Source of the DNA: Hyperoplus lanceolatus
Taxonomy: Eukaryota; Chordata; Actinopteri; Uranoscopiformes; Ammodytidae
Reading direction: 5' to 3'
Length of the DNA: 64,000 nucleotides
Assembly: GCA_026929865.2 (NCBI GenBank)
Contig: JAMBYZ020000028.1
Coordinates: 1 to 64,000 of the forward strand
Shown: one piece after another, positions 453 through 52,791 of the stretch
How the letters are laid out: the number at the start of each line of letters is the position of its first letter
How positions within the stretch are numbered: the stretch's first letter is position 1
Position numbers and translations under genes: made by a program
The notes under the pieces: model-generated
Database searches by the model: none
Told to the model about the DNA's origin: nothing
What the model saw: only the letters and a program-made list of their open reading frames with translations

Positions 453-453
<1 letters not shown>

Positions 454-616: not shown

Positions 617-1091
617 AAAATTAGATATGATTTTGGATTCAATAAAAAAAAACGCCCTGTCATTCCAGAGTCATTCCACTCCAGGTTCATAGTTCACAAC
701 CCCATGAGGTCCCCCAAGAAGTTTCAGGACATTCTGATGTGTAGTTTCAGAATAAAAGCCCACTAGATATTGAAAATATGAGAGAAATTAGATATGATTT
801 TGGATTCAATTTTTAAAAAAACGCCCTGTTATTCCAGAGTCATTCCACTCCAGGGTCATAGTTCACAACCCCATGAAGCCACACAAAAAGTTTCAGGATA
901 TTCTGATGTGTACTTTCAAAATAAAAGCCCACTTGATATTGAAAATATCAGAGAAATTAGATATGATTTTTGGATTCAATTTTTAAAAAAACACCCTGTT
1001 ATTCCAGAGTCATTCCACTGCAGGGTCATAATTCACAACCCCATGAGGTCACACAAGAAGATTCAGGACATTCTGATGTGTACTTTCAGGG
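617..1091 (+). repeat. Forward tract, n = 3 (A1, D, E)
   Basis: 475 bp. A1 starts with caataaaaaa and has gtcattcc plus aggttcatag variants; D and E follow. Confidence 0.92.
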
Positions 1092-1331
1092 TACCTCATG
1101 GGGTGACCTCATGGGGTTGTGGACCCTGGAGTTGGAATGACTCTGGAATCTTTTAAATTGAATCCAAAAACTCTTATCTAATTTCTCTCATATTTTCAAA
1201 TCAAGTGGGCTTTTATTCTGAAACTACACATCAGAATGTCCTGAAACTTTGTCTGGAATCACGAGAACTATAAAGTTTTTAACAGGGCGTTATTGAATCC
1301 GAAATCATATCTAATTTGTCTCATATTTTCA
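1092..1331 (-). repeat. Inverted block, I2 damaged
   Basis: I1 is readable through ctacacatcagaatg. The start of I2 is replaced by about 40 bp of unrelated-looking sequence (around 1250-1290) before cagggcg and the normal head-to-head junction. Confidence 0.88.
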
Positions 1332-1970
1332 AAATTAGATATGATTTTGGATTCAATAAAAAAAAACGCCCTGTTATTCCAGAGTCATTCCACTCCAGGG
1401 TCATAGTTCACAACCCCATGAGGTCCCCCAAGAAGTTTCAGGACATTCTGATGTGTAGTTTCAAAATAAAAGCCCACTAGATATTGAAAATATGAGAGAA
1501 ATTAGATATGATTTTGGATTAAATTTTTAAAAAAAAAACCTGTTATTCCAGAGTCATTCCACTCCAGGGTCATAGTTCACGACCCCATGAGGCCACAAAA
1601 AGTTTCAGGATATTCTGATGTGTAGTTTCAGAATAAAAGCCCACTAGATATTGAAAATATGAGAGAAATTAGATATGATTTTGGATTCAATTTTTAAAAA
1701 AACGCCCTGTTATTCCAGAGTCATTCCACTCCAGGGTCATAGTTCACAACCCCATGAAGCCACACAAAAAGTTTCAGGATATTCTGATGTGTACTTTCAA
1801 AATAAAAGCCCACTTGATATTGAAAATATCAGAGAAATTAGATATGATTTTGGATTCAATTTTTAAAAAACACCCTGTTATTCCAGAGTCATTTCACTGC
1901 AGGGTCATAATTCACAACCCCATGAGGTCACACAAGAAGATTCAGGACATTCTGATGTGTACTTTCAGGG
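1332..1970 (+). repeat. Forward tract, n = 4 (A1, B, D, E)
   Basis: 639 bp. The B monomer lacks one cac unit (gaggccacaaaaag) and starts with ggattaaat. Confidence 0.92.
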
Positions 1971-2240
1971 GGTGGCCTCCTGGGGTGACCTCAGGGGTTG
2001 GAACTTTGACCCTGGTGATTAGAATGACTCTGGAATATCAAGGCGCTTTTTTTTTGAACATAAAACTCCATCTAATTCTCATCATTCCAATTCATGGGCC
2101 TTTATTCTGAAACTACACATCATGATGGCCTCAAAAGTTGTGTGGTCAGGGGACACCTGAGTGTGGATTTTCGGGAATAACAGGGGTTCGTTTTTTTAAA
2201 TTGATATCTGAAATCATATCAATTTGTCTCATATTTTCAA
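1971..2240 (-). repeat. Inverted block, diverged
   Basis: Both junctions are recognisable, but the interior carries many substitutions and small indels (for example aggcgctttt and tcgggaataacagg). I1 lacks the aatcatatc core. Confidence 0.85.
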
Positions 2241-2882
2241 AATTAGATATGATTTTGGATTCAATAAAAAAAAAAACGCCCTGTTATTCCAGAAAAATTC
2301 CACTCCAGGGTCATAGTTCACAACCCCATGAGGTCCCCCAAGAAGTTTCAGGACATTCTGATGTGTAGTTTCAAAATAAAAGCCCACTAGATATTGAAAA
2401 TATGAAAGAAATTAGATATGATTTTGGATTCAATTAAAAAAAAAACGCCCTGTTATTCCAGAGTCATTCCACTCCAGGGTCATAGTTCACGACCCCATGA
2501 GGCCACACAAAAAGTTTCAGGACATTCTGATGTGTAGTTTCAGAATAAAAGCCCACTAGATATTGAAAATATGAGAGCAATTAGATATGATTTTGGATTC
2601 AATTTTTTAAAAAACGCCCTGTTCTTCCCGAGTCATTCCACTCCAGGGTCATAGTTCACGACCCCATGAAGCCACACAAAAAGTTTCAGGATATTCTGAT
2701 GTGTACTTTCAAAATAAAAGCCCACTTGATATTGAAAATATGAGAGCAATTAGATATGATTTTGGATTCAATTTTTAAAGAAACACCCTGTTATTCCAGA
2801 ATCATTCCACTGCAGGGTCATAATTCACAACCCCATGAGGTCACACAAAAAGATTAAGGACATTCTGATGTGTACTTTCAGG
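2241..2882 (+). repeat. Forward tract, n = 4 (A1, B, D, E)
   Basis: 642 bp. A1 has attccagaaaaattcc, D has gttcttcccgag, and E has cacacaaaaagattaagg: three private variants in one tract. Confidence 0.92.
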
Positions 2883-3155
2883 GTGACCTCATGGGGTTGT
2901 GAACTTGACCCTGGAGTTGAATGACTCTGGAATAACAGGGCGTTTTTTTTAATTGAATCCAAAATCATATCTAATTTCTCTCATATTTTCAATATCAAGT
3001 GGGCTTTTATTCTGAAACTACACATCAGAATGTCCTGAAACTTTGTGGGGGCCTCATGGGGTCGTGATCATGACCCTGGAGTGGAATTTTTCTGGAATAT
3101 CAGCGTGTTTTTTAATTGAATCCGAAATCATATCTAATTTGTCTCATATTTTCAA
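2883..3155 (-). repeat. Inverted block lacking the 13-bp junction duplication
   Basis: 273 bp. The tail-to-tail junction has a single tgacctcatgggg where most blocks have two in tandem. That accounts for its being about 13 bp shorter than the norm. Confidence 0.92.
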
Positions 3156-4307
3156 AATTAGATATGATTTTGGATTCAATAAAAAAAAAACGCCCTGTTA
3201 TTCCAGAGTCATTCCACTCCAGGGTCATAGTTCACAACCCCATGAGGTCCCCCAAGAAGTTTCAGGACATTCTGATGTGTAGTTTCAAAATAAAAGCCCA
3301 CTAGATATTGAAAATATGAGAGCAATTAGATATAATTTTGGTTTCAATTTAAAAAAAAACGACCTATTATTCCAGAGTCATTCCACTCCAGGTTCATAGT
3401 TCACAACCCCATGAGGTCACCCAAGAAGTTTCAGGACATTCTGATGTGTAGTTTCAAAATAAAAGCCCACTAGATATTGAAAATATGAGAGAAATTAGAT
3501 ATGATTTTGGATTCAATTTTTAATAAAACGCCCTGTTATTCCAGAGTCATTCCACTCCAGGGTCATAGTTCACGACCCCATGAGGCCACACAAAAAGTTT
3601 CAGGACATTCTGATGTATAGTTTCAGAATAAAAGCCCACTAGATATTGAAAATATGAGAGAAATTAGATATGATTTTGGATTCAATTTTTAAAAAAACGC
3701 CCTGTTATTCCAGAGTCATTCCACTCCACGGTCATAGTTCACGACCCCATGAAGCCACACAAAAAATTTCAGGATATTCTGATGTGTACTTTCAAAATAA
3801 AAGCCCACTTGATATTGAAAATATCAGAGAAATTAGATATGATTTTGGTTTCAATTTAAAAAAAAAAAACGCCCTGTTATTCCAGAGTCATTCCACTCCA
3901 GGGTCATAGTTCACGACCCCATGAGGCCACACAAAAAGTTTCAGGACATTCTGATGTGTAGTTTCAGAATAAAAGCCCACTAGATATTGAAAATATGAGA
4001 GAAATTAGATATGATTTTGGATTCAATTTTTAAAAAAACGCCCTGTTATTCCAGAGTCATTCCACTCCAGGGTCATAGTTCACGACCCCATGAAGCCACA
4101 CAAAAAGTTTCAGGATATTCTGATCTTTACTTTCAAAATAAAAGCCTACTTGATATTGAAAATATCAGAGAAATTAGATATGATTTTGGATTCAATTTTT
4201 AAAAAAACTCCCTGTTATTCCAGAGTCATTCCACTGCAGGGTCATAATTCACAACCCCATGAGGTCACACAAGAAGATTCAGGACATTCTGATGTGTACT
4301 TTCAGGG
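3156..4307 (+). repeat. Forward tract, n = 7 (A1, C, B, D, B, D, E)
   Basis: 1152 bp. The B-D pair is repeated, and the first D carries ccacggtcatag and an extra A in the type box. Confidence 0.92.
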
Positions 4308-4596
4308 TGACCTCATGGGGTGACCTCATGGGGTTGTGAACTTTGACCCTGGAGTTGAATGACTCTGGAATAACAGGGCGATTTTTTTAAATTGAATCCA
4401 AAATCATATCTAATTTCTCTCAAATGTTCAATATCAAGTGGGCTTTTATTCTGAAACTACACATCAGAATGTCCTGAAACTTTGTGTGTGGCCTCATGGG
4501 GTCGTGAACTATGACCCTGGAGTTGAATTTTCTGGAATAACAGGGCGTTTTTTTTAATTGAATCCGAAATCATATCTAATTTGTCTCATATTTTCA
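4308..4596 (-). repeat. Inverted block, intact reference copy
   Basis: 289 bp. It shows the tandem 13-bp junction unit tgacctcatgggg, then complete I1 (gaccctggagttgaatgactctgg), then truncated I2, recognised by a gaattttctgg variant that has lost the gactc step, then gtctcatattttca. The sequence flips back to forward at aaattagatatg. The I1 unit holds TGAACTTTGACCC at 4337-4349. Confidence 0.95.
4337..4349 (-). promoter_or_regulatory. DR1 motif in I1 of inverted blocks (representative)
   Basis: TGAACTTTGACCC reads GGGTCA-A-AGTTCA on the minus strand. With the next T it fits the TGAMCTTTGMMCYT pattern associated with HNF4/COUP-TF. It lies just after two TGACCT half-sites from the 13-bp junction repeat. 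Most intact blocks have it; those at 39167, 40858 and 43312 have gacactttg instead. Confidence 0.4.
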
Positions 4597-5069
4597 AAAT
4601 TAGATATGATTTTGGATTCAATAAAAAAAAAACGCCCTGTTATTCCAGAGTCATTCCACTCCAGGGTCATAGTTCACAACCCCATGAGGTCCCCCAAGAA
4701 GTTTCAGGACATTCTGATGTGTAGTTTCAAAATAAAAGCCCACTAGATATTGAAAATATGAAAGAAATTAGATATGATTTTGGATTCAATTAAAAAAAAC
4801 GCCCTGTTATTCCAGAGTCATTCCACTCCAGGGTCATAGTTCACGACCCCATGAGGCCACACAAAAAGTTTCAGGACATTCTGATGTGTACTTTCAAAAT
4901 AAAAGCCCACTAGATATTGAAAATATGAGAGCAATTAGATATGATTTTGGATTCAATTTTTAAAAAAAACACCCTGTTATTCCAGAGTCATTCCACTGCA
5001 GGGTCATAATTCACAACCCCATGAGGTCACACAAGAAGATTCAGGACATTCTGATGTGTACTTTCAGGG
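4597..5069 (+). repeat. Forward tract, n = 3 (A1, B, E)
   Basis: 473 bp. The D monomer that normally precedes E is absent; B carries the D-like tactttcaaaat end, suggesting a B/D recombinant. Confidence 0.92.
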
Positions 5070-5360
5070 TGACCTCATGGGGTGACCTCATGGGGTTGTG
5101 AACTTTGACCCTGGAGTTGAATGACTCTGGAATAACAGGGCGTTTTTTTTTAAATTGAATCCAAAATCATATCTAATTTCTCACATATTTTCAATATCAA
5201 GTGGGCTTTTTATTCTGAAACTACACATCAGAATGTCCTGAAACTTTGTGTGTGGCCTCATGGGGTCGTGAACTATGACCCTGGAGTGGAATTTTTCTGG
5301 AATAACAGGGCGTTTTTTTTATTGAATCCGAAATCATATCTAATTTGTCTCATATTTTCA
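5070..5360 (-). repeat. Inverted block, intact
   Basis: 291 bp with both standard junctions and the tandem 13-bp unit. Confidence 0.95.
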
Positions 5361-6681
5361 AAATTAGATATGATTTTGGATTCAATAAAAAAAAAAACGC
5401 CCTGTTATTCCAGAGTCATTCCACTCCAGGGTCATAGTTCACGACCCCATGAGGCCACACAAAAAGTTTCAGGACATTCTTATGTGTAGTTTCAAAATAA
5501 AAGCCCACTAGATATTGAAAATATGAAAGAAATTAGATATGATTTTGGATTACATTTTTTAAAAAACGCCCTGTTATACCAGAGTCATTCCACTCCAGGG
5601 TCTTAGTTCATGACCCCATGAAGCCAAACAAAAAGTTTCAGGATATTCTGATGTGTACTTTCAGAATAAAAGCCCACTAGATATTGAAAATATGAGACCA
5701 ATTAGATATGATTTTGGATTCAATTTAAAAAAAAACGCCCTGTTATTCCAGAGTCATTCCACTGCAGGGTCATAATTCACAACCCCATGAGGTCACACAA
5801 GAAGATTCAGGACATTCTGATGTGTAGTTTCAGAATAAAAGCCCACTAGATATTGAAAATATGAGAAAAATTAGATATGATTTTGGATTCAATTTAAAAA
5901 AAAAACGCCCTGTTATTCCAGAGTCCTTCCACTCCAGGGTCATAGTTCACAACCCCATGAGGTCCCCCAAGAAGTTTCAGGACATTCTGATGTGTAGCTT
6001 CAGAATAAAAGCCCACTAGATATTGAAAATATGAGAGAAATTAGATATGATTTTGGATTCAATTTAAAAAAAAACGCCCTGTTATTCCAGAGTCATTCCA
6101 CTCCAGGGTCATAGTTCACGACCCCATGAGGTCCCCCAAGAAGTTTCAGGACATTCTGATGTGTAGTTTCAGAATAAAAGCCCACTAGATATTGAAAATA
6201 TGAGAGAAATTAGATATGATTTTGGATTCAATTAAAAAAAAAACGCCCTGTTATTCCAGAGTCATTCCACTCCAGGGTCATAGTTCACGACCCCATGAGG
6301 CCACACAAAAAGTTTCAGGATATTCTGATGTGTACTTTCAAAATAAAAGCCCACCTGATATTGAAAATATCAGAGAAATTAGATATGATTTTGGATTCAA
6401 TTTTTAAAAAAACACCCTGTTATTCCAGAGTCATTCCACTCCCGGGTCATAGTTCACGACCCCATGAAGCCACACAAAAAGTTTCAGGATATTCTGATGT
6501 GTACTTTCAAAATAAAAGCCCACTAGATATTGAAAATATCAGAGAAATTAGATATGATTTTGGATTCAATTTTTAAAAAAACACCCTGTTATTCCAGAGT
6601 CATTCCACTGCAGGGTCATAATTCACAACCCCATGAGGTCACACAAGAAGATTCAGGACATTCTGATGTGTACTGTCAGGG
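5361..6681 (+). repeat. Forward tract, n = 8, with an orphan E
   Basis: 1321 bp: B, D-like (gaagccaaac), E, A, A, D-like, D, E. The E at about 5700-5840 has the PstI hexamer and the gaagattc box, but continues into a normal tagtttcagaat end and no inversion follows. Confidence 0.92.
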
Positions 6682-6973
6682 TGACCTCATGGGGTGACCT
6701 CATGGGGTTGTGAACTTTGACCCTGGAGTTGAATGACTCTGGAATAACAGGGCGTTTTTTTTAAATTGAATCCGAAATCATATCTAATTTCTCTCATTTT
6801 TTCAATATCAAGTGGGCTTTTATTCTGAAACTACACATCAGAATGTCCTGAAACTTTGTGTGTGGCCTCATGGGGTCGTGAACTATGACCCTGGAGTGGA
6901 ATTTTTCTGGAATAACAGGGCGTTTTTTTTTTAATTGAATCCGAAATCATATCTAATTTGTCTCATATTTTCA
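6682..6973 (-). repeat. Inverted block, intact
   Basis: 292 bp; the preceding E ends tactgtcaggg instead of tactttcaggg. Confidence 0.95.
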
Positions 6974-8124
6974 AAATTAGATATGATTTTGGGTTCAATA
7001 AAAAAAAAAACGCCCTGTTATTCCAGAGTCATTCCACTCCAGGGTCATAATTCACAACCCCATGAGGTCCCCCAAGAAGTTTCAGGACATTCTGATGTGT
7101 AGTTTCAAAATAAAAGCCCACTAGATATTGAAAATATGAGAGAAATTAGATATGATTTTGGATTCAATATAAAAAAAAACGCCCTGTTATTCCAGAGTCA
7201 TTCCACTCCAGGGTCATAGTTCACAACCCCATGAGGTCACCCAAGAAGTTTCAGGACATTCTGATGTGTAGTTTCAAAATAAAAGCCCACTAGATATTGA
7301 AAATATGAGAGAAATTAGATATGATTTTGGATTCAATTTAAAAAAAAACGCCCTGTTATTCCAGAGTCATTCCACTCCAGGGTCATAGTTCACAACCCCA
7401 TGAGGTCCCCCAAGAAGTTTCAGGACATTCTGATGTGTAGTTTCAGAATAAAAGCCCACTAGATATTGAAAATATGAGAGAAATTAGATATGATTTTGGA
7501 TTCAATTTAAAAAAAAACGCCCTGTTATTCCAGAGTCATTCCACTCCAGGGTCATAGTTCACAACCCCATGAGGTCCCCCAAGAAGTTTCAGGACATTCT
7601 GATGTGTAGTTTCAAAATAAAAGCCCACTAGATATTGAAAATATGAAATAAATTAGATATGATTTTGGATTCAATTAAAAAAAAAACGCCCTGTTATTCC
7701 AGAGTCATTCCACTCCAGGGTCATAGTTCACGACCCCATGAGGCCACACAAAAAGTTTCAGGACATTCTGATGTGTAGTTTCAGAATAAAAGCCCACTAG
7801 ATATTGAAAATATGAGAGCAATTAGATATGATTTTGGATTAAATTTTTAAAAAAACGCCCTGTTATTCCAGAGTCATTCCACTCCAGGGTCATAGTTCAC
7901 GACCCCATGAAGCCACACAAAAAGTTTCAGGATATTCTGATGTGTACTTTCAAAATAAAAGCCCACTTGATATTGAAAATATCAGAGAAATTAGATATGA
8001 TTTTGGATTCAATTTTTAAAAAAACACCCTGTTATTCCAGAGTAATTCCACTGCAGGGTCATAATTCACAACCCCATGAGGTCACACAAGAAGATTCAGG
8101 ACATTCTGATGTGTACTTTCAGGG
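6974..8124 (+). repeat. Forward tract, n = 7 (A1, C, A, A, B, D, E)
   Basis: 1151 bp. The A1 core reads ataattcac, an E-like base in an A box. The last E has gtaattcc. Confidence 0.93.
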
Positions 8125-8235
8125 TGACCTCTTAGGGTGACCTCATGGGGTTGTGAACTTTGACCCTGGAGTTGAATGACTCTGGAATAACAGGGCGTTT
8201 TTTTTTTTTAAATTGATATTTTCAAAATCTTTTGT
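8125..8235 (-). repeat. Inverted block, truncated inside I1
   Basis: I1 runs through cagggcg and a long T run, then breaks off near 8220-8235 and rejoins forward sequence at gtcattccagag. About 175 bp of block and the start of A1 are missing. The first 13-bp unit is mutated (tgacctcttaggg). Confidence 0.85.
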
Positions 8236-8829
8236 CATTCCAGAGTCATTCCACTCCAGGGTCATAGTTCACAACCCCATGAGGTCCCCCAAGAAGTTTC
8301 AGGACATTCTGATGTGTAGTTTCAAAATAAAAGCCCACTAGATATTGAAAATGTGAGAGAAATTAGATATGATTTTGGATTCAATTTAAAAAAAAAAACC
8401 CTGTTATTCCAGAGTCATTCCACTCCAGGGTCATAGTTAACAACCCCACGAAGTCCCCCAAGAAGTTTCAGGACCTTCTGATGTGTAGTTTCAAAATAAA
8501 AGCCCACTAGATATTGAAAATATGAAAGAAATTAGATATGATTTTGGATTCAATTAAAAAAAAAACCCCTGTTATTCCAGAGTCATTCCACTCCAGGGTC
8601 ATAGTTCACGACCCCATGAGGCCATACAAAAAGTTTCAGGACATTTTGATGTGTAGTTTCAGAATAAAAGCCCACTAGATATTGAAAATATGAGAGCAAT
8701 TAGATATGATTTTGGATTCAATTTTTAAAAAAACACCCTGTTATTCCAGAGTCATTCCATCCAGGGTCATAGTTCACGACCCCATGAAGCCACCAAAAAG
8801 TTTCAGGATATTCTGATGTGTACTTTCGA
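8236..8829 (+). repeat. Forward tract A, H, B, D with no E
   Basis: Its first monomer begins mid-unit. It ends in a D monomer (gaagccacc) that runs straight into a fragment of inverted sequence, so the usual E step is missing. Confidence 0.85.
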
Positions 8830-8890
8830 AATAACAGGCCCATTTTTTTGATATTGAAAATCCAAAATATATCTAATTTTCATATTTTCA
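8830..8890 (-). repeat. Inverted block remnant, ~60 bp
   Basis: Only ataacagg, a T run, aatccaaaat, atctaatttt and catattttca remain, ending at the standard head-to-head breakpoint. Confidence 0.8.
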
Positions 8891-9026
8891 AAATTAGATA
8901 TGATTTTGGATTCAATAAATAAAAAACACCCTGTTATTCCAGAGTAATTCCACTCCAGGGTCATAATTCACAACCCCATGAGGTCACCCCACAAGAAGTT
9001 TCAGGACATTCTGATGTGTAGTTTCA
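8891..9026 (+). repeat. Single forward monomer, n = 1
   Basis: 136 bp, the smallest member of the tract length series. It mixes C-like and E-like features (ataattcac, gaggtcaccccacaagaag). Confidence 0.85.
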
Positions 9027-9118
9027 GGGGCTTGGGGGGCTGGGGTTGTTTTGGTTTAGGGGTTTTCTATTTTCGGGGGGAAATCAAAAGCCCACTAGAT
9101 ATTGTCTCAAATTTTCAA
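9027..9118 (-). repeat. G-rich remnant of an inverted block
   Basis: 9027-9080 is G/T-rich with several G runs and little similarity to the monomer. It ends in a forward piece (aaagcccactagatatt) fused to gtctcaaattttca, the relic of the head-to-head junction. The next tract is exactly 644 bp, as expected after a block. Confidence 0.75.
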
Positions 9119-9762
9119 GAAATTAGATATGATTTTGAATTCAATTAAAAAAAAACGCCCTGTTATTCCAGAGTCATTCCACTCCAGGGTCATAGTTCAC
9201 GACCCCATGAGGTCCCCCAAGAAGTTTCAGGACATTCTGATATGTAGTTTCAAAATAAAAGCCCACTAGATATTGAAAATATGAAAGAAATTAGATATGA
9301 TTTTGGATTCAATTAAAAAAAAAACGCCCTCTTATTCCAGAGTCATTCCACTCCAGGGTCATAGTTCACGACCCCATGAGGCCACACAAAAAGTTGCAGG
9401 ACATTCTGATGTGTAGTTTCAGAATAAAAGCCCACTAGATATTGAAAATATGAGACCAATTAGATATGATTTTGGATTCAATTTTTAAAAAAACGCCCTG
9501 TTATTCCAGAGTCATTCCACTCCAGGGTCATAGTTCACGACCCCATGAAGCCACACAAAAAGTTTCAGGATATTCTGATGTGTACTTTCAAAATAAAAGC
9601 CCACTTGATATTGAAAATATCAGAGAAATTAGATATGATTTTGGATTCAATTTTTTAAAAAACACCCTGTTATTCCAGAGTCATTCCACTGCAGGGTCAT
9701 AATTCACAACCCCATGAGGTCACACAAGAAGATTCAGGACATTCTGATGTGTACTTTCAGGG
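9119..9762 (+). repeat. Forward tract, n = 4 (A, B, D, E)
   Basis: 644 bp; B has aagttgcagg, and D-E is the standard pair. Confidence 0.93.
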
Positions 9763-10053
9763 TGACCTCATGGGGTGACCTCATGGGGTTGTGAACTTTG
9801 ACCCTGGAGTTGAATGTCTCTGGAATAAAAGGGCGTTTTTTTAAATTGAATCCAAAATCATATCTAATTTCTCTCATATTTTCAATATCAAGTGGGCTTT
9901 TATTCTGAAACTACACATCAGAATGTCCTGAAACTTTGTGTGTGGCCTCATGGGGTCGTGAACTATGACCCTGGAGTGGAATTTTTCTGGAATAACAGGG
10001 CGTTTTTTTTTTAATTGAATCCGAAATCATATCTAATTTGTCTCATATTTTCA
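9763..10053 (-). repeat. Inverted block, intact
   Basis: 291 bp; I1 has gaatgtctctgg and ataaaagggcg variants. Confidence 0.95.
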
Positions 10054-14847: not shown

Positions 14848-14970
14848 TGACCTCATGGGGTGACCTCATGGGGTTGTGAACTTTGACCCTGGAGTTGAAT
14901 GACTCTGGAATAACAGGGCGTTTTTTTTAAATTGAATCCAAAATCATATCTAATTTGTCTCATATTTTCA
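14848..14970 (-). repeat. Single-monomer inverted block (I1/I2 recombinant)
   Basis: 123 bp. It begins as I1 (with gaatcc followed by aaaatcatatc) and switches to the I2 end (gtctcatattttca). About one monomer has been deleted, with the crossover between gaatcc and gtctc. Confidence 0.92.
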
Positions 14971-42382: not shown

Positions 42383-42668
42383 TGACCTCATGGGGTGACC
42401 TCATGGGGTTGTGAACTTTGACCCTGGAGTTGAATAACTCTGGAATAACAGGGCGTTTTTTTAAATTGAATCCAAAATCATATCTAATTTCTCACATATT
42501 TTCAATATAAATTGGGCTTTTATTCTGAAACTACACATCAGAATGTCCTGAAACTTTGTGTGGCCTCATGGGGTCGTGAACTATGACCCTGGAGTGGAAT
42601 TTTTCTGGAATAACAGGGCGTTTTTTTAATTGAATCCGAAATCATATCTAATTCGTCTCATATTTTCA
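42383..42668 (-). repeat. Inverted block, intact
   Basis: 286 bp; gaataactctgg and tcaaaactag dialect. Confidence 0.95.
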
Positions 42669-43311
42669 AAACTAGATAATTTTTTGGATTCAATAAAAAA
42701 AAAACGCCCTGTTATTCCAGAGTCATTCAACTCCAGGGTCATAGTTCACGACCCCATGAGGTCCCCCAAGAAGTTTCAGGACATTCTGATGTGTAGTTTC
42801 AGAATAAAAGCCCATTAGATATTGAAAATATGAGAGAAATTAGATATGATTTTGGATTCAATTAAAAAAAAAACGCCCTGTTATTCCAGAGTCATTCCAC
42901 TCCAGGGTCATAGTTCACGACCCCATGAGGTCCCCCAAGAAGTTTCAGGACATTCTGATGTGTAGTTTCAGAATAAAAGCCCACTAGATATTGAAAATAT
43001 GAGAGAAATTAGATATGATTTTGGATTCAATTTAAAAAAAAACGCCCTGTTATTCCAGAGTCATTCCACTCCAGGGTCATAGTTCACAACCCCATGAGGT
43101 CCCCCAAGAAGTTTCAGGACATTCTGATGTGTAGTTTCAAAATAAAAGCCCACTAGATATTGAAAATATCAGAGAAATTAGATATGATTTTGGATTCAAT
43201 TTTTAAAAAAACACCCTGTTATTCCAGAGTCATTCCACTGCAGGGTCATAATTCACAACCCCATGAGGTCACACAAGAATATTCAGGACATTCTGATGTG
43301 TACTTTCAGGG
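42669..43311 (+). repeat. Forward tract, n = 4 (A1, A, A, E)
   Basis: 643 bp; third copy of the cattcaactcc tract. Confidence 0.94.
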
Positions 43312-43604
43312 TGACCTCATGGGGTGACCTCATGGGGTTGGACACTTTGACCCTGGAGTTGAATGACTCTGGAATAACAGGGCGTTTTTTTTAAATTGAA
43401 TCCAAAATCATATCTAATTTCTCTCATATTTTCAATATCGAGTGGGCTTTTATTCTGAAACTACACATCAGAATGTCCTGAAACTTTGTGTGAGGCCTCA
43501 TGGGGTCGTGAACTATGACCCTGGAGGGGAATTTTTCTGGAATAACAGGACGTTTTTTTTTTTTATTGAATCCGAAATCATATCTAATTCGTCTCATATT
43601 TTCA
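43312..43604 (-). repeat. Inverted block, intact, gacactttg variant
   Basis: 293 bp; third copy of the gacactttg / aggacg block. Confidence 0.95.
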
Positions 43605-44248
43605 AAATTAGATAATTTTTTGGATTCAATTAAAAAAAAAATGCCCTGTTATTCCAGAGTCATTCCACTCCAGGGTCATAGTTCAAAACCCCATGAGGTC
43701 CCCCAAGAAGTTTCAGGACATTCTGATGTGTAGTTTCAAAATAAAAGCCCACTAGATATTGAAAATATGAGAGAAATTAGATATGATTTTGGATTCAATT
43801 TTTAAAAAAACGCCCTGTTATTCCAGAGTCATTCCAATCCAGGGTCATAGTTCACGACCCCATGAGGCCACACAAAAAGTTTCAGGACATTCTGATGTGT
43901 AGTTTCAGAATAAAAGCCCACTAGATATTGAAAATATGAGAGAAATTAGATATGATTTTGGATTCAATTTTTAAAAAAACGCCCTGTTATTCCAGAGTCA
44001 TTCCACTCCAGGGTCATAGTTCACAACCCCATGAAGCCACACAAAAAGTTTCAGGATATTCTGATGTGTACTTTCAAAATAAAAGCCCACTTGATATTGA
44101 AAATATCAGAGAAATTAGATATGATTTTGGATTCAATTTTTAAAAAAACACCCTGTTATTCCAGAGTCATTCCACTGCAGGGTCATAATTCACAACCCCA
44201 TGAGGTCACACAAGAAGATTCAGGACATTCTGATGTGTACTTTCAGGG
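43605..44248 (+). repeat. Forward tract, n = 4 (A1, B, D, E)
   Basis: 644 bp; B, D, E as in 39453-39927, with an extra A1 carrying gttcaaaacccc. Confidence 0.94.
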
Positions 44249-44537
44249 TGACCTCATGGGGTGACCTCATGGGGTTGTGGACTTTGACCCTGGAGTTGAA
44301 TGACTCTGGAATAACAGGGGGTTTTTTTAAATTGAATCCAAAATCATATCTAATTTCTCTCATATTTTCAATATCAAGTGGGCTTTATTCTGAAACTACA
44401 CATCAGAATGTCCTGAAACTTTGTGTGTGGCCTCATGGGGTCGTGAACTATGACCCTGGAGTGGAATTTTCTGGAATAACAGGGCGTTTTTTTTTTAATT
44501 GAAATCGAAATCATATCTAATTCGTCTCATAATTTCA
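44249..44537 (-). repeat. Inverted block, intact
   Basis: 289 bp; the head junction has cataatttca. Confidence 0.95.
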
Positions 44538-45350
44538 AAATTAGATAATTTTTTGGATTCAATTAAAAAAAAAACGCCCTGTTATTCCAGAGTCATTCCA
44601 CTCCAGGGTCATAGTTCACGACCCCATGAGGTCCCCCAAGAAGTTTCAGGACATTCTGATGTGTAGTTTCAGAATAAAAGCCCACTAGATATTGAAAATA
44701 TGAGAGAAATTAGATATGATTTTGGATTCAATTTAAAAAAAAATGCCCTGTTATTCCAGAGTCATTCCACTCCAGGGTCATAGTTCACAACCCCATGAGG
44801 TCCCCCAAGAAGTTTCAGGACATTCTGATGTGTAGTTTCAAAATAAAAGCCCACTAGATATTGAAAATATGAGAGAAATTAGATATGATTTTGGATTCAA
44901 TTTTTAAAAAAACGCCCTGTTATTCCAGAGTCATTCCACTCCAGGGTCATAGTTCACGACCCCATGCGGCCACACAAAAAGTTTCAGGACATTCTGATGT
45001 GTAGTTTCGGAATAAAAGCCCACTAGATATTGAAAATATGAGAGAAATTAGATATGATTTTGGATTCAATTTTTAAAAAAACGCCCTGTTATTCCAGAGT
45101 CATTCCACTCCAGGGTCATAGTTCACAACCCCATGAAGCCACACACAAAGCTTCAGGATATTCTGATGTGTACTTTCAAAATAAAAGCCCACTTGATATT
45201 GAAAATATCAGAGAAATTAGATATGATTTTGGATTCAATTTTTAAAAAAACACCCTGTTATTCCAGAGTCATTCCACTGCAGGGTCATAATTCACAACCC
45301 CATGAGGTCACACAAGAAGATTCAGGACATTCTGATGTGTACTTTCAGGG
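44538..45350 (+). repeat. Forward tract, n = 5 (A1, A, B, D, E)
   Basis: 813 bp; B has catgcggcc and gtttcggaat, duplicated 4648 bp downstream at 49611. Confidence 0.94.
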
Positions 45351-45635
45351 TGACCTCATGGGGTGACCTCATGGGGTTGGGAACTTTGACCCTGGAGTTG
45401 AATGACTCTGGAATAACAGGGCGTTTTTTAAATTGAATCCAAAATCATATCTAATTTCTCTCATATTTTCAATATCGAGTGGGCTTTTATTCTGAAACTA
45501 CACATCAGAATGTCCTGAAACTTTGTGTGTGGCCTCTTGGGGTCGTGAACTATGACCCTGGAGTGGAATTTTCTGGTATAACAGGGCGTTTTTTTTTATT
45601 GAATCAAATCATATCTAATTCGTCTCATATTTTCA
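45351..45635 (-). repeat. Inverted block, intact
   Basis: 285 bp; I2 has cctcttggggtc, which is matched in the block at 50000. Confidence 0.95.
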
Positions 45636-46617
45636 AAATTAGATAATTTTTTGGATTCAATTAAAAAAAAAATTCCCTGTTATTCCAGAGTCATTCCACT
45701 CCAGGGTCATAGTTCAAAACCCCATGAGGTCCCCCAAGAAGTTTCAGGACATTCTGATGTGTAGTTTCAAAATAAAAGCCCACTAGATATTGAAAATATC
45801 AGAGAAATTAGATATGATTTTGGATTCAATTTTTAAAAAAACTCCCTGTTATTCCAGAGTCATTCCACTCCAGGGTCATAGTTCACGACCCCATGAGGCC
45901 ACACAAAAGTTTCAGGACATTCTGATGTGTAGTTTCAGAATAAAAGCCCACTAGATATTGAAAATATGAGAGAAATTAGATATGATTTTGGATTCAATTT
46001 AAAAAAAAAACGCCCTGTTATTCCAGAGTCATTCCACTCCAGGGTCATAGTTCACAACCCCATGAGGTCACCCAAGAAGTTTCAGGACATTCTGATGTGT
46101 AGTTTCAAAATAAAAGCCCACTAGATATTGAAAATATGAGAGAAATTAGATATGATTTTGGATTCAATTTTTAAAAAAACGCCCTGTTATTCCAGAGTCA
46201 TTCCACTCCAGGGTCATAGTTCACGACCCCATGAGGCCACACAAAAAGTTTCAGGACATTCTGATGTGTAGTTTCAGAATAAAAGCCCACTAGATATTGA
46301 AAATATGAGAGAAATTAGATATGATTTTGGATTCAATTTTTAAAAAAACGCCCTGTTATTCCAGAGTCATTCCACTCCAGGGTCATAGTTCACAACCCCA
46401 TGAAGCCACACAAAAAGTTTCAGGATATTCTGATGTGTACTTTCAAAATAAAAGCCCACTTGATATTGAAAATATCAGAGAAATTAGATATGATTTTGGA
46501 TTCAATTTTTAAAAAAACACCCTGTTATTCCAGAGTCATTCCACTGCAGGGTCATAATTCACAACCCCATGAGGTCACACAAGAAGATTCAGGACATTCT
46601 GATGTGTACTTTCAGGG
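45636..46617 (+). repeat. Forward tract, n = 6 (A1, B, C, B, D, E)
   Basis: 982 bp; A1 has aattccctg and gttcaaaacccc, matched at 50285-51268. Confidence 0.94.
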
Positions 46618-46904
46618 TGACCTCATGGGGTGACCTCATGGGGTTGTGGACTTTGACCCTGGAGTTGAATGACTCTGGAATAACAGGGAGGTTTTTTAAA
46701 TTGAATCCAAAATCATATCTAATTCCTCTCATATTTTCAATATCAAGTGGGCTTTTTATTCTGAAACTACACATCAGAATGTCCTGAAACTTTGTGTGTG
46801 GCTCATGGGGTCGTGAACTATGACCCTGGAGTGGAATTTTCTGGAATAACAGGGCGTTTTTTTAATTGAATCCGAAATCATATCTAATTCGTCTCATATT
46901 TTCA
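46618..46904 (-). repeat. Inverted block, intact
   Basis: 287 bp. Its counterpart in the 4.65-kb duplicate is the G-rich block at 51269. Confidence 0.95.
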
Positions 46905-48394
46905 AAACTAGATAATTTTTTGGATTCAATTTTCAAAAAAACGCCCTGTTATTCCAGAGTCATTCCACTCCAGGGTCATAGTTCACGACCCCATGAGGCC
47001 ACACAAAAAGTTTCAGGACATTCTGATGTGTAGTTTCAGAATAAAAGCCCACTAGATATTGAAAATATGAGAGAAATTAGATATGATTTTGGATTCAATT
47101 TTAAAAAAACGCCCTGTTATTCCAGAGTCATTCCACTCCAGGGTCATAGTTCACGACCCCATGAGGCCACAGAAAAGTTTCAGGACATTCTGATGTGTAG
47201 TTTCAGAATAAAAGCCCACTAGATATTGAAAATATGAGAAAAATTAGATATGATTTTGGATTCAATTTAAAAAAAAAATGCCCTGTTATTCCAGAGTGAT
47301 TCCACTCCAGGGTCATAGTTCACAACCCCATGAGGTCCCCCAAGAAGTTTCAGGACATTCTGATGTGTAGTTTCAAAATAAAAGCCCACTAGATATTGAA
47401 AATATGAGAGAAATTAGATATGATTTTGGATTCAATTTAAAAAAAAACTCCCTGTTATTCCAGAGTCATTCCACTCCAGGGTCATAGTTCACGACACCAT
47501 GAGGTCCCCCAAGAAGTTTCAGGACATTGTGATGTGTAGTTTCAGAATAAAAGCCCACTAGATATTGAAAATATGAGAGAAATTAGATATGATTTTGATT
47601 TCAATTTAAAATAAACGCCCTGTTATCCCAGAGTCATTCCACTCCAGGGTCATAGTTCACAACCCCATGAGGTCACCCAAGAAGTTTCAGGACATTCTGA
47701 TGTGTAGTTTCAAAATAAAAGCCCACTAGATATTGAAAATATGAGAGAAATTAGATATGATTTTGGATTCAATTTTTAAAAAAACGCCCTGTTATTCCAG
47801 AGTCATTCCACTCCAGGGTCATAGTTCACAACCCCATGAGGTCCCCCAAGAAGTTTCAGGACATTCTGATGTGTAGTTTCAAAATAAAAGCCCACTAGAT
47901 ATTGAAAATATGAGAGAAATTAGATATGATTTTGGATTAAATTTTTAAAAAAACCTCCCTGTTATTCCAGAGTCATTCCACTCCAGGGTCATAGTTCACA
48001 ACCCCATGAGGTCCCCCAAGAAGTTTCAGGACATTCTGATGTTTAGTTTCAGAATAAAAGCCCACTAGATATTGAAAATATGAGACAAATTAGATATGAT
48101 TTTGGATTCAATTTAAAAAAAAAAACGCCCTGTTATTCCAGAGTCATTCCACTCCAGGGTCATAGTTCACGACCAAATGAGGCCATACAAACAGTTTCAG
48201 GACATTTAGATGTGTAGTTTCAGAATAAAAGCCCACTAGATATTGAAAATATCAGAGAAATTAGATATGATTTTGGATTCAATTTTTAAAAAAACACCCT
48301 GTTATTCCAGAGTCATTCCACTGCAGGGTCATAATTCACAACCCCATGAGGTCACACAAGAAGATTCAGGACATTCTGATGTGTACTTTCAGTG
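46905..48394 (+). repeat. Forward tract, n = 9 (B, B, A, A, C, A, A, B*, E)
   Basis: 1490 bp; the first five monomers, including gacaccatgagg at 47492, match 51474 onward. Confidence 0.94.
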
Positions 48395-48680
48395 TGACCT
48401 CATGGGGTGACCTCATGGGGTTGTGAACTTTGACCCTGGAGTTGAATAACTCTGGAATAACAGGGCGTTTTTTTAAATTGAATCCAAAATCATATCTAAT
48501 TTCTCACATATTTTCAATATCAATTGGGCTTTTATTCTGAAACTACACATCAGAATGTCCTGAAACTTTGTGTGTGGCCTCATGGGGTCGTGAACTATGA
48601 CCCTGGGAATTTTTCTGGAATAACAGGGCGTTTTTTTTTTTTGGAATCCGAAATCATATCTAATGCGTCTCATATTTTCA
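48395..48680 (-). repeat. Inverted block, near intact
   Basis: 286 bp; it follows agtgtgacctc, and I2 has lost the gagt of ctggagtgg. Confidence 0.94.
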
Positions 48681-49999
48681 AAACTAGATAAATTTTTGGA
48701 TTCAATTAAAAAAAAAACGCCCTGTTATTCCAGAGTCATTCCATTCCAGGGTCATAGTTCACAACCCCATGAGGTCCCCCAAGAAGTTTACGGACATTCT
48801 GATGTGTAGTTTCAAAATAAAAGCCCACTAGATATTGAAAATATGAGAGAAATTAGATATGATTTTGGATTCAATTTTTAAAAAAACTCCCTGTTATTCC
48901 AGAGTCATTCCACTCCAGGGTCATAGTTCACAACCCCATGAGGTCACCCAAGAAGTTTCAGGACATTCTGATGTGTAGTTTCAAAATAAAAGCCCACTAG
49001 ACATTGAAAATATGAGAGAAATTAGATATGATTTTGGATTCAATTTTTAAAAAAACGCCCTGTTATTCCAGAGTCTTTCCACTCCAGGGTCCTAGTACAC
49101 GACCCCATGAGGCCACACAAAAAGTTTCAGGACATTCTGATGTGTAGTTTCAGAATAAAAGCCCACTAGATATTGAAAATATGAGAGAAATTAGATATGA
49201 ATTTGGATTCAATTTAAAAAAAAACGCCCTGTTATTCCAGAGTCATTCCACTCCAGGGTCATAGTTCACGACCCCATGAGGTCCCCAAGAAGTTTCAGGA
49301 CATTCTGATGTGTAGTTTCAGAATAAAAGCCCACTAGATATTGAAAATATGAGAGAAATTAGATATGATTTTGTATTCAATTTAAAAAAAAATGCCCTGT
49401 TATTCCAGAGTCATTCCACTCCAGGGTCATAGTTCACAACCCCATGAGGTCCCCCAAGAAGTTTCAGGACATTCTGATGTGTAGTTTCAAAATAAAAGCC
49501 CACTAGATATTGAAAATATGAGAGAAATTAGATATGATTTTGGATTCAATTTTAAAAAAACGCCCTGTTATTCCAGAGTCATTCCACTCCAGGGTCATAG
49601 TTCACGACCCCATGCGGCCACACAAAAAGTTTCAGGACATTCTGATGTGTAGTTTCGGAATAAAAGCCCACTAGATATTGAAAATATGAGAGAAATTAGA
49701 TATGATTTTGGATTCAATTTTTAAAAAAAACGCCCTGTTATTCCAGAGTCATTCCACTCCAGGGTCATAGTTCACAACCCCATGAAGCCACACACAAAGT
49801 TTCAGGATATTCTGATGTGTACTTTCAAAATAAAAGCCCACTTGATATTGAAAATATCAGAGAAATTAGATATGATTTTGGATTCAATTTTTAAAAAAAC
49901 ACCCTGTTATTCCAGAGTCATTCCACTGCAGGGTCATAATTCACAACCCCATGAGGTCACACAAGAAGATTCAGGACATTCTGATGTGTACTTTCAGGG
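48681..49999 (+). repeat. Forward tract, n = 8 (A, C, B, A, A, B, D, E)
   Basis: 1319 bp; the last five monomers duplicate 44538-45350. Confidence 0.94.
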
Positions 50000-50284
50000 T
50001 GACCTCATGGGGTGACCTCATGGGGTTGTGAACTTTGACCCTGGAGTTGAATGACTCTGGAATAACAGGGCGTTTTTTTAAATTGAATCCAAAATCATAT
50101 TAATTCTCTCATATTTTCAATATCGAGTGGGCTTTTATTCTGAAACCCACATCAGAATGTCCTGAAACTTTGTGTGTGGCCTCTTGGGGCCGTGAACTAT
50201 GACCCTGGAGGGGAATTTTCTGGAATAACAGGGCGTTTTTTTTTATTGAAATCGAAATCATATCTAATTCGTCTCATATTTTCA
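50000..50284 (-). repeat. Inverted block, intact
   Basis: 285 bp; 4649 bp from its counterpart at 45351. Confidence 0.95.
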
Positions 50285-51268
50285 AAATTAGATAATTTTT
50301 TGGATTCAATTAAAAAAAAAATTCCCTGTTATTCCAGAGTCATTCCACTCCAGGGTCATAGTTCAAAACCCCATGAGGTCCCCCAAGAAGTTTCAGGACA
50401 TTCTGATGTGTAGTTTCAAAATAAAAGCCCACTAGATATTGAAAATATGAGAGAAATTAGATATGATTTTGGATTCAATTTTTAAAAAAAACTCCCTGTT
50501 ATTCCAGAGTCATTCCACTCCAGGGTCATAGTTCACGACCCCATGAGGACACACAAAAAGTTTCAGGACATTCTGATGTGTAGTTTCAGAATAAAAGCCC
50601 ACTAGATATTGAAAATATGAGAGAAATTAGATATGATTTTGGATTCAATTTAAAAAAAAAAAAACGCCCTGTTATTCCAGAGTCATTCCACTCCAGGGTC
50701 ATAGTTCACAACCCCATGAGGTCACCCAAGAAGTTTCAGGACATTCTGATGTGTAGTTTCAAAATAAAAGCCCACTAGATATTGAAAATATGAGAGAAAT
50801 TAGATATGATTTTGGATTCAATTTAAAAAAAACGCCCTGTTATTCCAGAGTCATTCCACTCCAGGGTCATAGTTCACGACCCCATGAGGCCACACAAAAA
50901 GTTTCAGGACATTCTGATGTGTAGTTTCAGAATAAAAGCCCACTAGATATTGAAAATATGAGAGAAATTAGATATGATTTTGGATTCAATTTTTAAAAAA
51001 ACGCCCTGTTATTCCAGAGTCATTCCACTCCAGGGTCATAGTTCACAACCCCATGAAGCCACACAAAAAGTTTCAGGATATTCTGATGTGTACTTTCAAA
51101 ATAAAAGCCCACTTGATATTGAAAATATCAGAGAAATTAGATATGATTTTGGATTCAATTTAAAAAAAAACACCCTGTTATTCCAGAGTCATTCCACTGC
51201 AGGGTCATAATTCACAACCCCATGAGGTCACACAAGAAGATTCAGGACATTCTGATGTGTACTTTCCA
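50285..51268 (+). repeat. Forward tract, n = 6 (A1, B, C, B, D, E)
   Basis: 984 bp; duplicate of 45636-46617. Confidence 0.94.
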
Positions 51269-51473
51269 GGGGGGTGGGGGGGGTCCTCATGGGGTTGTGG
51301 ACGGGCCTGGGGTTTAGGACTCTGGGTTTTTTTGGGCCGGATTGGGAGGGGTTATCTCTTTTTTCTCATATTTCCATTTCCATGGGTTTTTTCTAAAATA
51401 AAATCCCCTAAATTTAATTGGTGTTACATAATGAATAAAAGCCGCAATTGATATTGAAAATATCCAGATGTAA
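51269..51473 (-). repeat. G-rich, corrupted inverted block
   Basis: About 205 bp where the 4.65-kb duplicate has an intact 287-bp block (46618). Traces remain (cctcatggggttgtgg, actctgg, ctcatattt), between G/T-rich pieces that do not match the monomer. Later bases return to aataaaagc and gatattgaaaatat in the forward sense. Confidence 0.82.
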
Positions 51474-52791
51474 ATCAAAGATATGTTTTTGGATTCAATT
51501 TTAAAAAAACGCCCTGTTATTCCAGAGTCATTCCACTCCAGGGTCATAGTTCACGACCCCATGAGGCCACACAAAAAGTTTCAGGACATTCTGATGTGTA
51601 GTTTCAGAATAAAAGCCCACTAGATATTGAAAATATGAGAGAAATTAGATATGATTTTGGATTCAATTTATAAAAAAACGCCCTGTTATTCCAGAGTCAT
51701 TCCACTCCAGGGTCATAGTTCACGACCCCATGAGGCCACACAAAAGTTTCAGGACATTCTGATGTGTAGTTTCAGAATAAAAGCCCACTAGATATTGAAA
51801 ATATGAGAAAAATTAGATATGATTTTGGATTCAATTTAAAAAAAAAATGCAATGTTATTCCAGAGTCATTCCACTCCAGGGTCATAGTTCACAACCCCAT
51901 GAGGTCCCCCAAGAAGTTTCAGGACATTCTGATGTGTAGTTTCAAAATAAAAGCCCACTAGATATTGAAAATATGAGAGAAATTAGATATGATTTTGGAT
52001 TCAATTTAAAAAAAAACGCCCTGTTATTCCAGAGTCATTCCACTCCAGGGTCATAGTTCACGACACCATGAGGTCCCCCAAGAAGTTTCAAGGACATTGT
52101 GATGTGTAGTTTCAGAATAAAAGCCCACTAGATATTGAAAATATGAGAGAAATTAGATATGATTTTGGATTCAATTTAAAAAAAACGCCCTGTTATTCCA
52201 GAGTCATTCCACTCCAGGGTCATAGTTCACAACCCCATGAGGTCACCCAAGAAGTTTCAGGACATTCTGATGTGTAGTTTCAAAATAAAAGCCCACTAGA
52301 TATTGAAAATATGAGAGAAATTAGATATGATTTTGGATTCAATTTTAAAAAATTGCCCTGTTATTCCAGAGTCATTCCACTCCAGGGTCATAGTTCACGA
52401 CCCCATGAGGCCACACAAAAAGTTTCAGGACATTCTGATGTGTAGTTTCAGAATAAAAGCCCACTAGATATTGAAAATATGAGAGAAATTAGATATGATT
52501 TTGGATTCAATTTTTAAAAAAACGCCCTGTTATTCCAGATTCATTCCACTCCAGGGTCATAGTTCACAACCCCATGAAGCCACACAAAAAAGTTTCAGGA
52601 TATTCTGATGTGTACTTTCAAAATAAAAGCCCACTTGATATTGAAAATATCAGAGAAATTAGATATGATTTTGGATTCAATTTTTAAAACACCCTGTTAT
52701 TCCAGAGTCATTCCACTGCAGGGTCATAATTCACCAAACCCCATGAGGTCACACAAGAAGATTCAGGACATTCTGATGTGTACTTTCAGGG
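51474..52791 (+). repeat. Forward tract, n = 8 (B, B, A, A, C, B, D, E)
   Basis: 1318 bp. gacaccat at 52061 pairs with 47492. The last E has accaaaccccatg. Confidence 0.93.

What the first reader, a model, noticed from the sequence alone, without database searches (positions are those of the whole stretch)
617..52791. Forward tract lengths are quantised between fixed-breakpoint inversions
Distances from each head-to-head junction to the next tail-to-tail junction cluster at about 136, 475, 643, 813, 983, 1151, 1320 and 1490 bp, close to n x 169.5 - 34 for n = 1, 3, 4, 5, 6, 7, 8 and 9. Block plus tract is therefore a half-integer number of monomers (762 bp = 4.5; 931 bp = 5.5). One founding inversion seems to have been copied about 47 times, while forward monomers between copies were gained or lost only in whole units, as expected from unequal exchange in register.
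Basis: seen in the sequence. Interest (0 to 1): 0.75.

Follow-up and report, generated by a model that had tools for sequence, protein, structure and literature searches.

The report
One small inversion copied through satellite
In what looks like a fish genome, a 169-base satellite repeat carries a short backwards segment that mostly has the same two breakpoints, so the forward stretches between copies come in whole-repeat lengths; one old inversion seems to have been copied across the genome, which gives a natural marker for how satellite DNA reshuffles.

Summary
The window is a 169-bp satellite interrupted by a reverse block of about 290 bp with fixed breakpoints. In 617-52791, 37 forward tracts of 100 bp or more lie between reverse stretches; 33 run from phase 167 to phase 131 within one base and fit length = 169.15n - 36. 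Unfiltered, the 37 lengths have resultant 0.93 at period 169, against at most 0.51 in 20,000 randomised sets. Given fixed breakpoints in a regular array, quantisation is a corollary; the real content is common ancestry. Blocks share private variants (site 61 A in 111/113 blocks, 4/765 forward monomers), and the last forward monomer before a block has its own (65G 72/74 against 6/199 inside). The two junctions occur 8,578 and 8,338 times in the 807-Mb assembly, not about 47. Tract ends are position-locked and interiors mixed, as in-register exchange predicts, but conversion or circle amplification is not excluded. Blocks hold 2.7-5 times the indels of unselected forward flanks, perhaps sequencing error at hairpins. 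Closest published case found: conserved inversion sites in Tribolium madens satellites. New variant of a known kind.

The parts
1..64000 (+). 169-bp satellite array, forward orientation predominant; first 64 kb of contig C48 (100,496 bp)
1089..1331 (-). reverse block (243 bp, error-rich, near contig start)
1967..2239 (-). reverse block (273 bp, error-rich)
2881..3154 (-). reverse block without the 13-bp duplication (274 bp)
4305..4596 (-). reverse block (292 bp)
5067..5360 (-). reverse block (294 bp)
6679..6973 (-). reverse block (295 bp)
8122..8232 (-). irregular reverse stretch (111 bp), breakpoints not the usual ones
9760..10053 (-). reverse block (294 bp)
11543..11827 (-). reverse block (285 bp)
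13145..13449 (-). irregular block: usual outer junctions, interior broken by short forward pieces in the segmentation
13787..13920 (+). example of the position-locked last forward monomer (E-0, 134 bp, phase 167 to 131); start counted back from the tail-to-tail junction
   Evidence: exact start is inference
13921..14209 (-). reverse block (289 bp); folded with its upstream forward arm
14845..14970 (-). short reverse block, one monomer fewer (126 bp; site 16 T)
15609..15890 (-). reverse block (282 bp)
16364..16638 (-). reverse block without the 13-bp duplication (275 bp)
17111..17400 (-). reverse block (290 bp)
18549..18842 (-). reverse block (294 bp)
20162..20450 (-). reverse block (289 bp)
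21936..22224 (-). reverse block (289 bp)
23035..23325 (-). reverse block (291 bp)
24644..24690 (-). truncated reverse block (47 bp); usual tail-to-tail side only
24691..29716 (+). long uninterrupted forward tract, about 30 monomers, starts at phase 164
29717..29979 (-). diverged reverse block (263 bp)
30952..31241 (-). reverse block (290 bp)
31242..36617 (+). long uninterrupted forward tract, n = 32
36618..36744 (-). short reverse block, one monomer fewer (127 bp; site 16 C)
38233..38522 (-). reverse block (290 bp), in first copy of a recent duplication
39164..39452 (-). reverse block (289 bp), in first copy of a recent duplication
38233..39924 (+). two-block unit (block, n=4, block, n=3), first copy of a recent tandem duplication
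39925..40214 (-). reverse block (290 bp), in second copy
40855..41139 (-). reverse block (285 bp), in second copy
39925..41611 (+). second copy of the two-block unit, 98.7% identical at aligned bases
41612..41905 (-). reverse block (294 bp)
42380..42668 (-). reverse block (289 bp)
42380..43308 (+). third copy of the block + n=4 part, 99.6% identical at aligned bases to 38233-39163
43309..43604 (-). reverse block (296 bp)
44246..44537 (-). reverse block (292 bp)
45348..45635 (-). reverse block (288 bp)
46615..46904 (-). reverse block (290 bp)
48392..48680 (-). reverse block (289 bp)
49997..50284 (-). reverse block (288 bp)
52789..53093 (-). diverged reverse block (305 bp), at the finding's end
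58298..58588 (-). reverse block (291 bp) with an altered head-to-head end
60926..61214 (-). diverged reverse block (289 bp)
63442..63723 (-). reverse block (282 bp)

Best explanation
One rearrangement in an ancestral 169-bp satellite array put about 1.7 monomers (290 bp, with a 13-bp tandem duplication at one end) in reverse orientation between phase 131 and phase 167, replacing 35 bp. This founding event is inferred from common breakpoints and shared variants; its chemistry (two template switches, or a small inversion with deletion) is a guess. The block was then copied together with its neighbouring forward monomers by tandem duplication and recombination between arrays, to roughly 8,300-8,600 copies in the assembly. 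Homologous exchange in register between forward tracts keeps the first and last monomers of each tract tied to their junctions and changes only the whole number of monomers in between, so tract lengths are 169.15n - 36. The same in-register process sometimes removes one monomer inside the block. No function is needed to explain the pattern. Shown: fixed breakpoints, shared private variants, whole-unit steps, recent copies that include blocks. Inferred: the founding mechanism, and that unequal crossing over rather than conversion or circle amplification is the main route.
For: Junction phases over C48 and 16 loci from 13 other contigs: tail-to-tail (131|70-71) in 148 of 187 forward-to-reverse switches, head-to-head (15-16|167) in 145 of 186 reverse-to-forward switches. 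Block-private variants: site 61 A in 111/113 full blocks and 4/765 forward monomers; 74 A 109/113 and 0/765; 54 A 108/113 and 4/765. Last forward monomer (E-0) in 74 tracts with n >= 5: 65G 72/74, 76A 72/74, 106A 73/74, 128C 74/74, against 6, 3, 2 and 22 of 199 interior monomers. The signal fades with distance: 92A, 114T and 164C are in 39-42 of 74 at E-1, 2-5 of 74 at E-2 and 11-19 of 199 inside. An E-0 signature has 10,206 matches genome-wide; in the exact matches listed, 15 of 18 junctions on C8 and 8 of 10 on C5 have it at the fixed offset, and 15 of 15 and 8 of 13 signatures have an exact junction. F1 is associated with the block before it (9.8 times permuted, p 0.0005), while F1 and E-1 of one tract are not (1.4, 0.5, 0.9 times, all p > 0.1). 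Short blocks, 14 of 128, carry R1 variants with site 16 of either type (7 and 7). Recent duplication 38233-39924 / 39925-41611.
Against: Tracts of n 1-2 are scarcer than a free-exchange simulation gives (8.5% against 20.8%). 14 of 66 spacings under 3 kb on C1, C5, C8 and C14 are 1,426-1,445 bp (n = 7) (my count; no test), which hints at amplification of whole units. Left and right blocks of a tract are still associated (4.0 times, p 0.005), E-1 is not significantly tied to the block after it (1.5 times, p 0.13), F3 shows more association with the preceding block (2.1 times, p 0.02) than F2 does (1.2 times), and interior neighbours are associated as strongly as end neighbours in places. Blocks are no more alike within C48 or one locus (median distance 0.038) than between them (0.034). 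In the recent duplication the forward tracts are 99.8-100% alike but the two blocks only 97.6% and 95.7%. No raw reads were seen.
Confidence: 0.78

Rival explanations
1. The block spread mainly by excision of unit circles, rolling-circle copying and reinsertion, or by gene conversion between chromosomes, and not by unequal crossing over within arrays.
For: Blocks are as alike between loci as within C48 or one locus; spacings near 1,438 bp recur on three large contigs (14 of 66); near-identical same-length tracts occur on different contigs (11 of the top 25 pairs; some may be the two haplotypes of one place).
Against: Successive tract lengths in C48 show only a weak correlation (r 0.17, p 0.08, 49 tracts), so long runs of one unit, as circles would leave, are not seen there; tract-end locking and interior mixing fit exchange.
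Confidence: 0.25
2. The inverted block is kept by selection because its arms of about 270 bp can form a hairpin or cruciform that helps a pericentromeric or centromeric array work, as proposed for dyad symmetries.
For: One block with its arm folds at -259.8 kcal/mol against -61.2 +- 5.0 for shuffles (trivial for any inverted duplication); listed arrays lie near one end of five large contigs; short spacings are scarce; published proposals for beetle satellites.
Against: No chromatin or CENP-A data; no CENP-B-box-like site in the window at up to 1 mismatch (motif recalled); blocks carry excess indels and some are truncated; tracts of about 30 monomers exist without a block.
Confidence: 0.12
3. 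The reverse blocks are sequencing or assembly artefacts.
For: Poly-G stretches and degraded blocks near the contig start (window 370-452) and poly-G at the end of C8; blocks have 2.7 to 5 times the gap events of unselected forward flanks.
Against: The same breakpoints on chromosome-scale and small contigs, 8,578 and 8,338 matches in nearly equal numbers and 0 for the backward-read controls; the adjacent forward monomer is also distinct, which no hairpin artefact explains.
Confidence: 0.03
4. The same inversion arose many times at a fragile site of the monomer.
For: Fixed phases could reflect a hotspot.
Against: Shared block-private variants and the E-0 variants would not recur independently.
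Confidence: 0.02

Closest known systems
Tribolium madens TmSat1/TmSat2 satellites with conserved inversion sites INV_1a, INV_1b, INV_2 (PMC13081366; abstract, search passages, section 7 part 1 and section 10 part 1 read)
   Same: Orientation changes within satellite arrays; a subunit at the inversion site is diverged from the standard one yet 98-99% alike among thousands of copies (INV_1a, INV_1b); dyad symmetry; putative pericentromere.
   Different: There inverted subarrays run for kilobases and form macro-dyads, with two satellites intermingled. Here a fixed 290-bp (or 125-bp) block sits in an otherwise one-way array of one satellite. The paper says satellite macro-dyads are documented only in Tribolium.
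Tribolium brevicornis 1061-bp satellite with inverted segments of about 470 bp (Mravinac et al. 2005; seen only as described and cited in PMC13081366)
   Same: An inverted segment is built into the repeat unit.
   Different: There the unit is a 1061-bp monomer; here the forward part varies by whole 169-bp monomers.
Higher-order repeats in centromeric satellites such as human alpha satellite (recalled)
   Same: Position-specific monomer types propagated with a unit; whole-monomer length variants.
   Different: Standard higher-order repeats run head-to-tail; here each unit holds an inverted block and a half-monomer register shift.
Medaka centromeric repeats (PMC5705604, search passages read)
   Same: Teleost; one figure legend notes an inverse orientation of a repeat pattern in a centromeric region of about 305 kb.
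   Different: No fixed short inverted block was described in the passages seen.

Membership tests
Satellite DNA | Long head-to-tail arrays of one monomer | tested here: met
   169-bp period over 64 kb
Higher-order repeat | Monomers at set positions are more alike between units than to other positions | tested here: inconclusive
   clear at E-0 (0.980 between tracts, 0.91-0.93 to interior monomers), weak at F1 (0.957), interior positions near background
Higher-order repeat | Constant number of monomers per unit | tested here: not met
   n from 1 to 32 in 118 tracts
Conserved satellite inversion site (Tribolium INV type) | Same breakpoint; junction unit diverged from standard monomers but homogeneous among copies | tested here: met
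   113 full blocks, median 97.3% to their own consensus
Macro-dyad symmetry (Tribolium) | Opposed subarrays of several kb and similar length | tested here: not met
   intact blocks in the window are 126-305 bp; larger flips on C1 were not examined
Centromeric satellite | Binds CENP-A, FISH at centromeres | not testable with these tools
   only the position near one end of listed large contigs is known
Centromeric satellite with CENP-B box | NTTCGNNNNANNCGGGN (recalled) | tested here: not met
   0 in the window at up to 1 mismatch, 3.34 expected by chance

The most novel reading that the evidence does not exclude
A vertebrate satellite carries a single-origin inverted hairpin block at some 8,500 sites that locks the register and identity of the flanking monomers and sets a minimum spacing, so that it acts as a selected structural bookmark in fish (peri)centromeric chromatin: a vertebrate counterpart, on a smaller scale, of the beetle inversion sites.
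Probability: 0.12. Interest if true: 0.75.

Novelty: new variant of a known kind. Interest (0 to 1): 0.45.

Why it matters
Because the block is in reverse orientation and has private variants, each copy is a landmark in otherwise uniform DNA. It lets one ask directly whether satellites evolve by crossing over, conversion or circle amplification: tract ends stay linked to the landmark while interiors mix. It suggests that conserved inversion sites in satellites are not confined to beetles, and that conserved breakpoints need no function if one founder is copied. The excess of indels in blocks warns that inverted repeats inside satellites may be poorly called in assemblies.

Tried and rejected
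Geometric lengths, as from random placement of fixed-phase blocks: rejected on C48 (49 tracts, chi-square p 1.6e-7). I first read this as evidence against free exchange, but a simulation of free exchange (one run of 500 tracts with mean n of 6) gives a humped distribution, so only the shortage of n 1-2 remains unexplained.

Block error test: my first comparison chose pairs by forward identity and found about 6 times the substitutions in adjacent blocks. That is largely selection bias. With selection on one flank only (102 and 38 pairs out of 5,253 pairs of 103 usable blocks) block substitutions equal those of the far flank (0.0445 against 0.0487; 0.0345 against 0.0343), and only gap events stay high (0.0145 against 0.0054; 0.0149 against 0.0029). 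In the 9 pairs with both flanks nearly identical, three blocks still differ by 12, 30 and 39 substitutions.

Identity of the organism: COX1, ND2 and COX2 from a 16,509-bp contig read as a teleost fish by eye; not tested against a database; species unknown.

Papers: the held library has no paper with any of four satellite oligos. Seven other searches listed none that, by title and start of abstract, describes this satellite or such a block in a fish; I opened three papers. No exact match in viral or prokaryote contigs. A count of all forward monomers in the genome did not complete.

Correction: an earlier count said 16 other contigs; the right count is 16 loci from 13 other contigs. Within-contig in the output means within C48 or within one locus.
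Full report
What is there. The window is the first 64 kb of a 100,496-bp contig in an 806.7-Mb assembly of 527 contigs. COX1, ND2 and COX2 from a separate 16,509-bp contig read as a teleost fish by eye; no database test was made. The window is a 169-bp satellite of about 37% G+C. A dynamic-programming segmentation against the consensus on both strands shows forward tracts that mostly begin at consensus phase 167 and end at phase 131, separated by reverse blocks. A full block is a 13-bp duplication (GGGTGACCTCATG) followed by about 277 bp of reverse monomer, from forward phase 97 down to 153 through one whole extra monomer. Of 128 blocks with intact ends in the material segmented, 113 are full-length, 14 are about one monomer shorter and 1 is 243 bp.

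The observation. In 617-52791, 37 forward tracts of at least 100 bp lie between reverse stretches and 33 have both fixed phases within one base; these give length = 169.15n - 36. Without a phase filter the 37 lengths have a resultant of 0.93 at period 169; the largest of 20,000 randomised sets was 0.51. I also segmented the rest of C48 and 16 loci from 13 other contigs, mostly 10 kb each (loci L001-L008 and L030-L040 were not segmented). There, 141 unfiltered tracts of 100 bp or more gave a resultant of 0.90 for the 138 under 4 kb. 118 of 153 tracts had both phases fixed; the 35 others are decayed or fragmented sites, split segments, or a non-satellite stretch in L021. On contigs C1, C5, C8 and C14, of 66 spacings under 3 kb between listed tail-to-tail junctions, 51 are half-integer multiples of 169.2 (fraction 0.4-0.6) and 8 are near integers (exact matches only, from the first 100 places listed). 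The half-integer value follows from one number, 290 - 36 = 254 bp = 1.5 monomers, fixed once at the founding.

Quantisation is a corollary. If both breakpoints are fixed and the array is regular, tract lengths must be whole monomers plus a constant. The informative question is why the breakpoints are the same.

Single founder. The 113 full-length blocks share variants that forward monomers lack: site 61 A (111/113 against 4/765), 74 A (109/113 against 0/765), 54 A (108/113 against 4/765), 55 A (103/113 against 2/765). Blocks are a median 97.3% identical to their own consensus, gaps counted. More telling, the forward monomer just before a block, which is in the ordinary orientation, has its own set: 65G 72/74, 76A 72/74, 106A 73/74, 128C 74/74, against 6, 3, 2 and 22 of 199 interior monomers (tracts with n of 5 or more). 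A signature of this monomer has 10,206 matches genome-wide with up to 2 mismatches. Among the exact matches listed, 15 of 18 junctions on C8 and 8 of 10 on C5 have the signature at the fixed offset; conversely 15 of 15 and 8 of 13 signatures have an exact junction. The tail-to-tail junction has 8,578 matches and the head-to-head junction 8,338 with up to 1 mismatch, and the backward-read controls none.

How lengths change. Tract ends are locked and interiors are not. E-0 is nearly fixed, the E-1 variants are in about half the tracts, and E-2 is at background. Random tracts compared from the tail-to-tail end are 0.980 identical at E-0 and 0.944-0.962 further in; from the head-to-head end, 0.957 at F1 and 0.945-0.957 further in, so the locking is clear on one side and weak on the other. 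F1 is associated with the block before it (9.8 times permuted) and E-0 with E-1 (7.8 times), while F1 and E-1 of one tract are not associated (1.4, 0.5 and 0.9 times for short, middle and long tracts). Against full decoupling, left and right blocks of a tract remain associated (4.0 times, p 0.005), E-1 is not significantly tied to the block after it (1.5 times, p 0.13; two polymorphic block sites), F3 is more tied to the preceding block (2.1 times, p 0.02) than F2 (1.2 times), and interior neighbours are also associated (for example F3 with F4, 4.1 times), partly because two monomer types alternate. The block itself loses a monomer: all 14 short blocks carry the R1 variant at site 61 and 13 of 14 that at site 74, while site 16 is C, as in most R2 copies (99/113), in 7 and T, as in R1, in 7. 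That suggests at least two crossover positions, though some R2 copies lack the C. Copying that includes blocks is visible in the window: 38233-39924 and 39925-41611 are 98.7% identical at aligned bases, and 42380-43308 is 99.6% identical to 38233-39163.

What the exchange model does not explain. A simulation of free in-register exchange with mean n of 6 gives a humped distribution like the observed one, but with 20.8% of tracts at n 1-2, against 10 of 118. The loci were chosen by similarity to two forward monomers and cut to 10 kb, which may bias the sample. 14 of 66 spacings on the large contigs are 1,426-1,445 bp (n = 7) (my count), which hints at amplification of whole units. Blocks are not more alike within C48 or one locus than between them.

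Data quality. In the recent duplication the forward tracts are 99.8-100% alike while the two blocks are 97.6% and 95.7% alike. In a wider test with pairs chosen on one flank, blocks show 2.7 to 5 times the gap events of the far flank but the same substitution rate. Insertions against the consensus are 0.0037 per base in blocks and 0.0016 in forward monomers, and singleton substitutions about twice those of the linked E-0 monomer. Degraded blocks and poly-G lie at the contig start (window 370-452), and poly-G at the end of C8. Lower base-calling accuracy in inverted duplications is published for nanopore reads (PMC7229812, abstract and outline read). The sequencing platform here is unknown, so I cannot separate calling error from real hairpin mutagenesis. 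Neither accounts for the shared variants.

Place and possible function. Listed junctions on large contigs lie near one end: C1 about 130 kb from the end, C5, C6 and C8 within 1-3 kb of the end, C14 about 1 Mb from the end beside a run of N, where the list is cut. That suits a pericentromeric or subtelomeric array; no TTAGGG was in the 500-base end stretches read of C1, C5, C8 and C14. A block with its arm folds at -259.8 kcal/mol, as any inverted duplication would. I find no evidence that requires selection.

Known relatives. Tribolium madens satellites have conserved inversion sites that are diverged from standard subunits but 98-99% alike among thousands of copies (PMC13081366). This is the same kind of thing on a smaller scale, in what looks like a fish, with a fixed short block instead of opposed kilobase subarrays. 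It fails the constant-length criterion of a strict higher-order repeat and the macro-dyad criterion.

Noticed in passing
370-617: Runs of up to 35 G and a degraded reverse block at the contig start; a similar poly-G stretch at the end of contig C8 (L038). Probably a contig-end consensus artefact.
   Followed up: partly
51265-58588: Region with several degenerate reverse stretches (identity 0.68-0.88) and lower forward identity, unlike the clean array before it.
   Followed up: no
24644-24690 and contig C48 99637-99684 (in L012): Two truncated blocks (47-48 bp) cut at almost the same internal place and followed by forward sequence from phase 164-168; perhaps one deletion that was itself copied.
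   Followed up: partly
L014 and L025 (oriented copies at 8136-8447 and 6778-7084): The tail-to-tail loop is flipped in place (block longer and next tract shorter by about 34 bp), as recombination between the hairpin arms, or an assembly ambiguity, would give.
   Followed up: partly
G000:C1 43.43-43.64 Mb: Listed junctions change strand between 43.495 and 43.497 Mb and back between 43.573 and 43.574 Mb, so an inverted segment of about 76-79 kb, or a scaffold join, lies within the array.
   Followed up: no
L021 about 6930-9030: Stretch of about 2 kb with no clear satellite similarity inside the array, possibly an inserted element.
   Followed up: no
10054-11542, 18843-20162, 36745-38233: Forward tracts with a 339-bp period: two monomer types (differing at sites 28-29, 82, 94, 98, 102, 134) tend to alternate.
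   Followed up: partly
L027 1-1133 (as fetched): A reverse stretch of 1,133 bp ending with the usual head-to-head junction, far longer than any intact block in the window.
   Followed up: no
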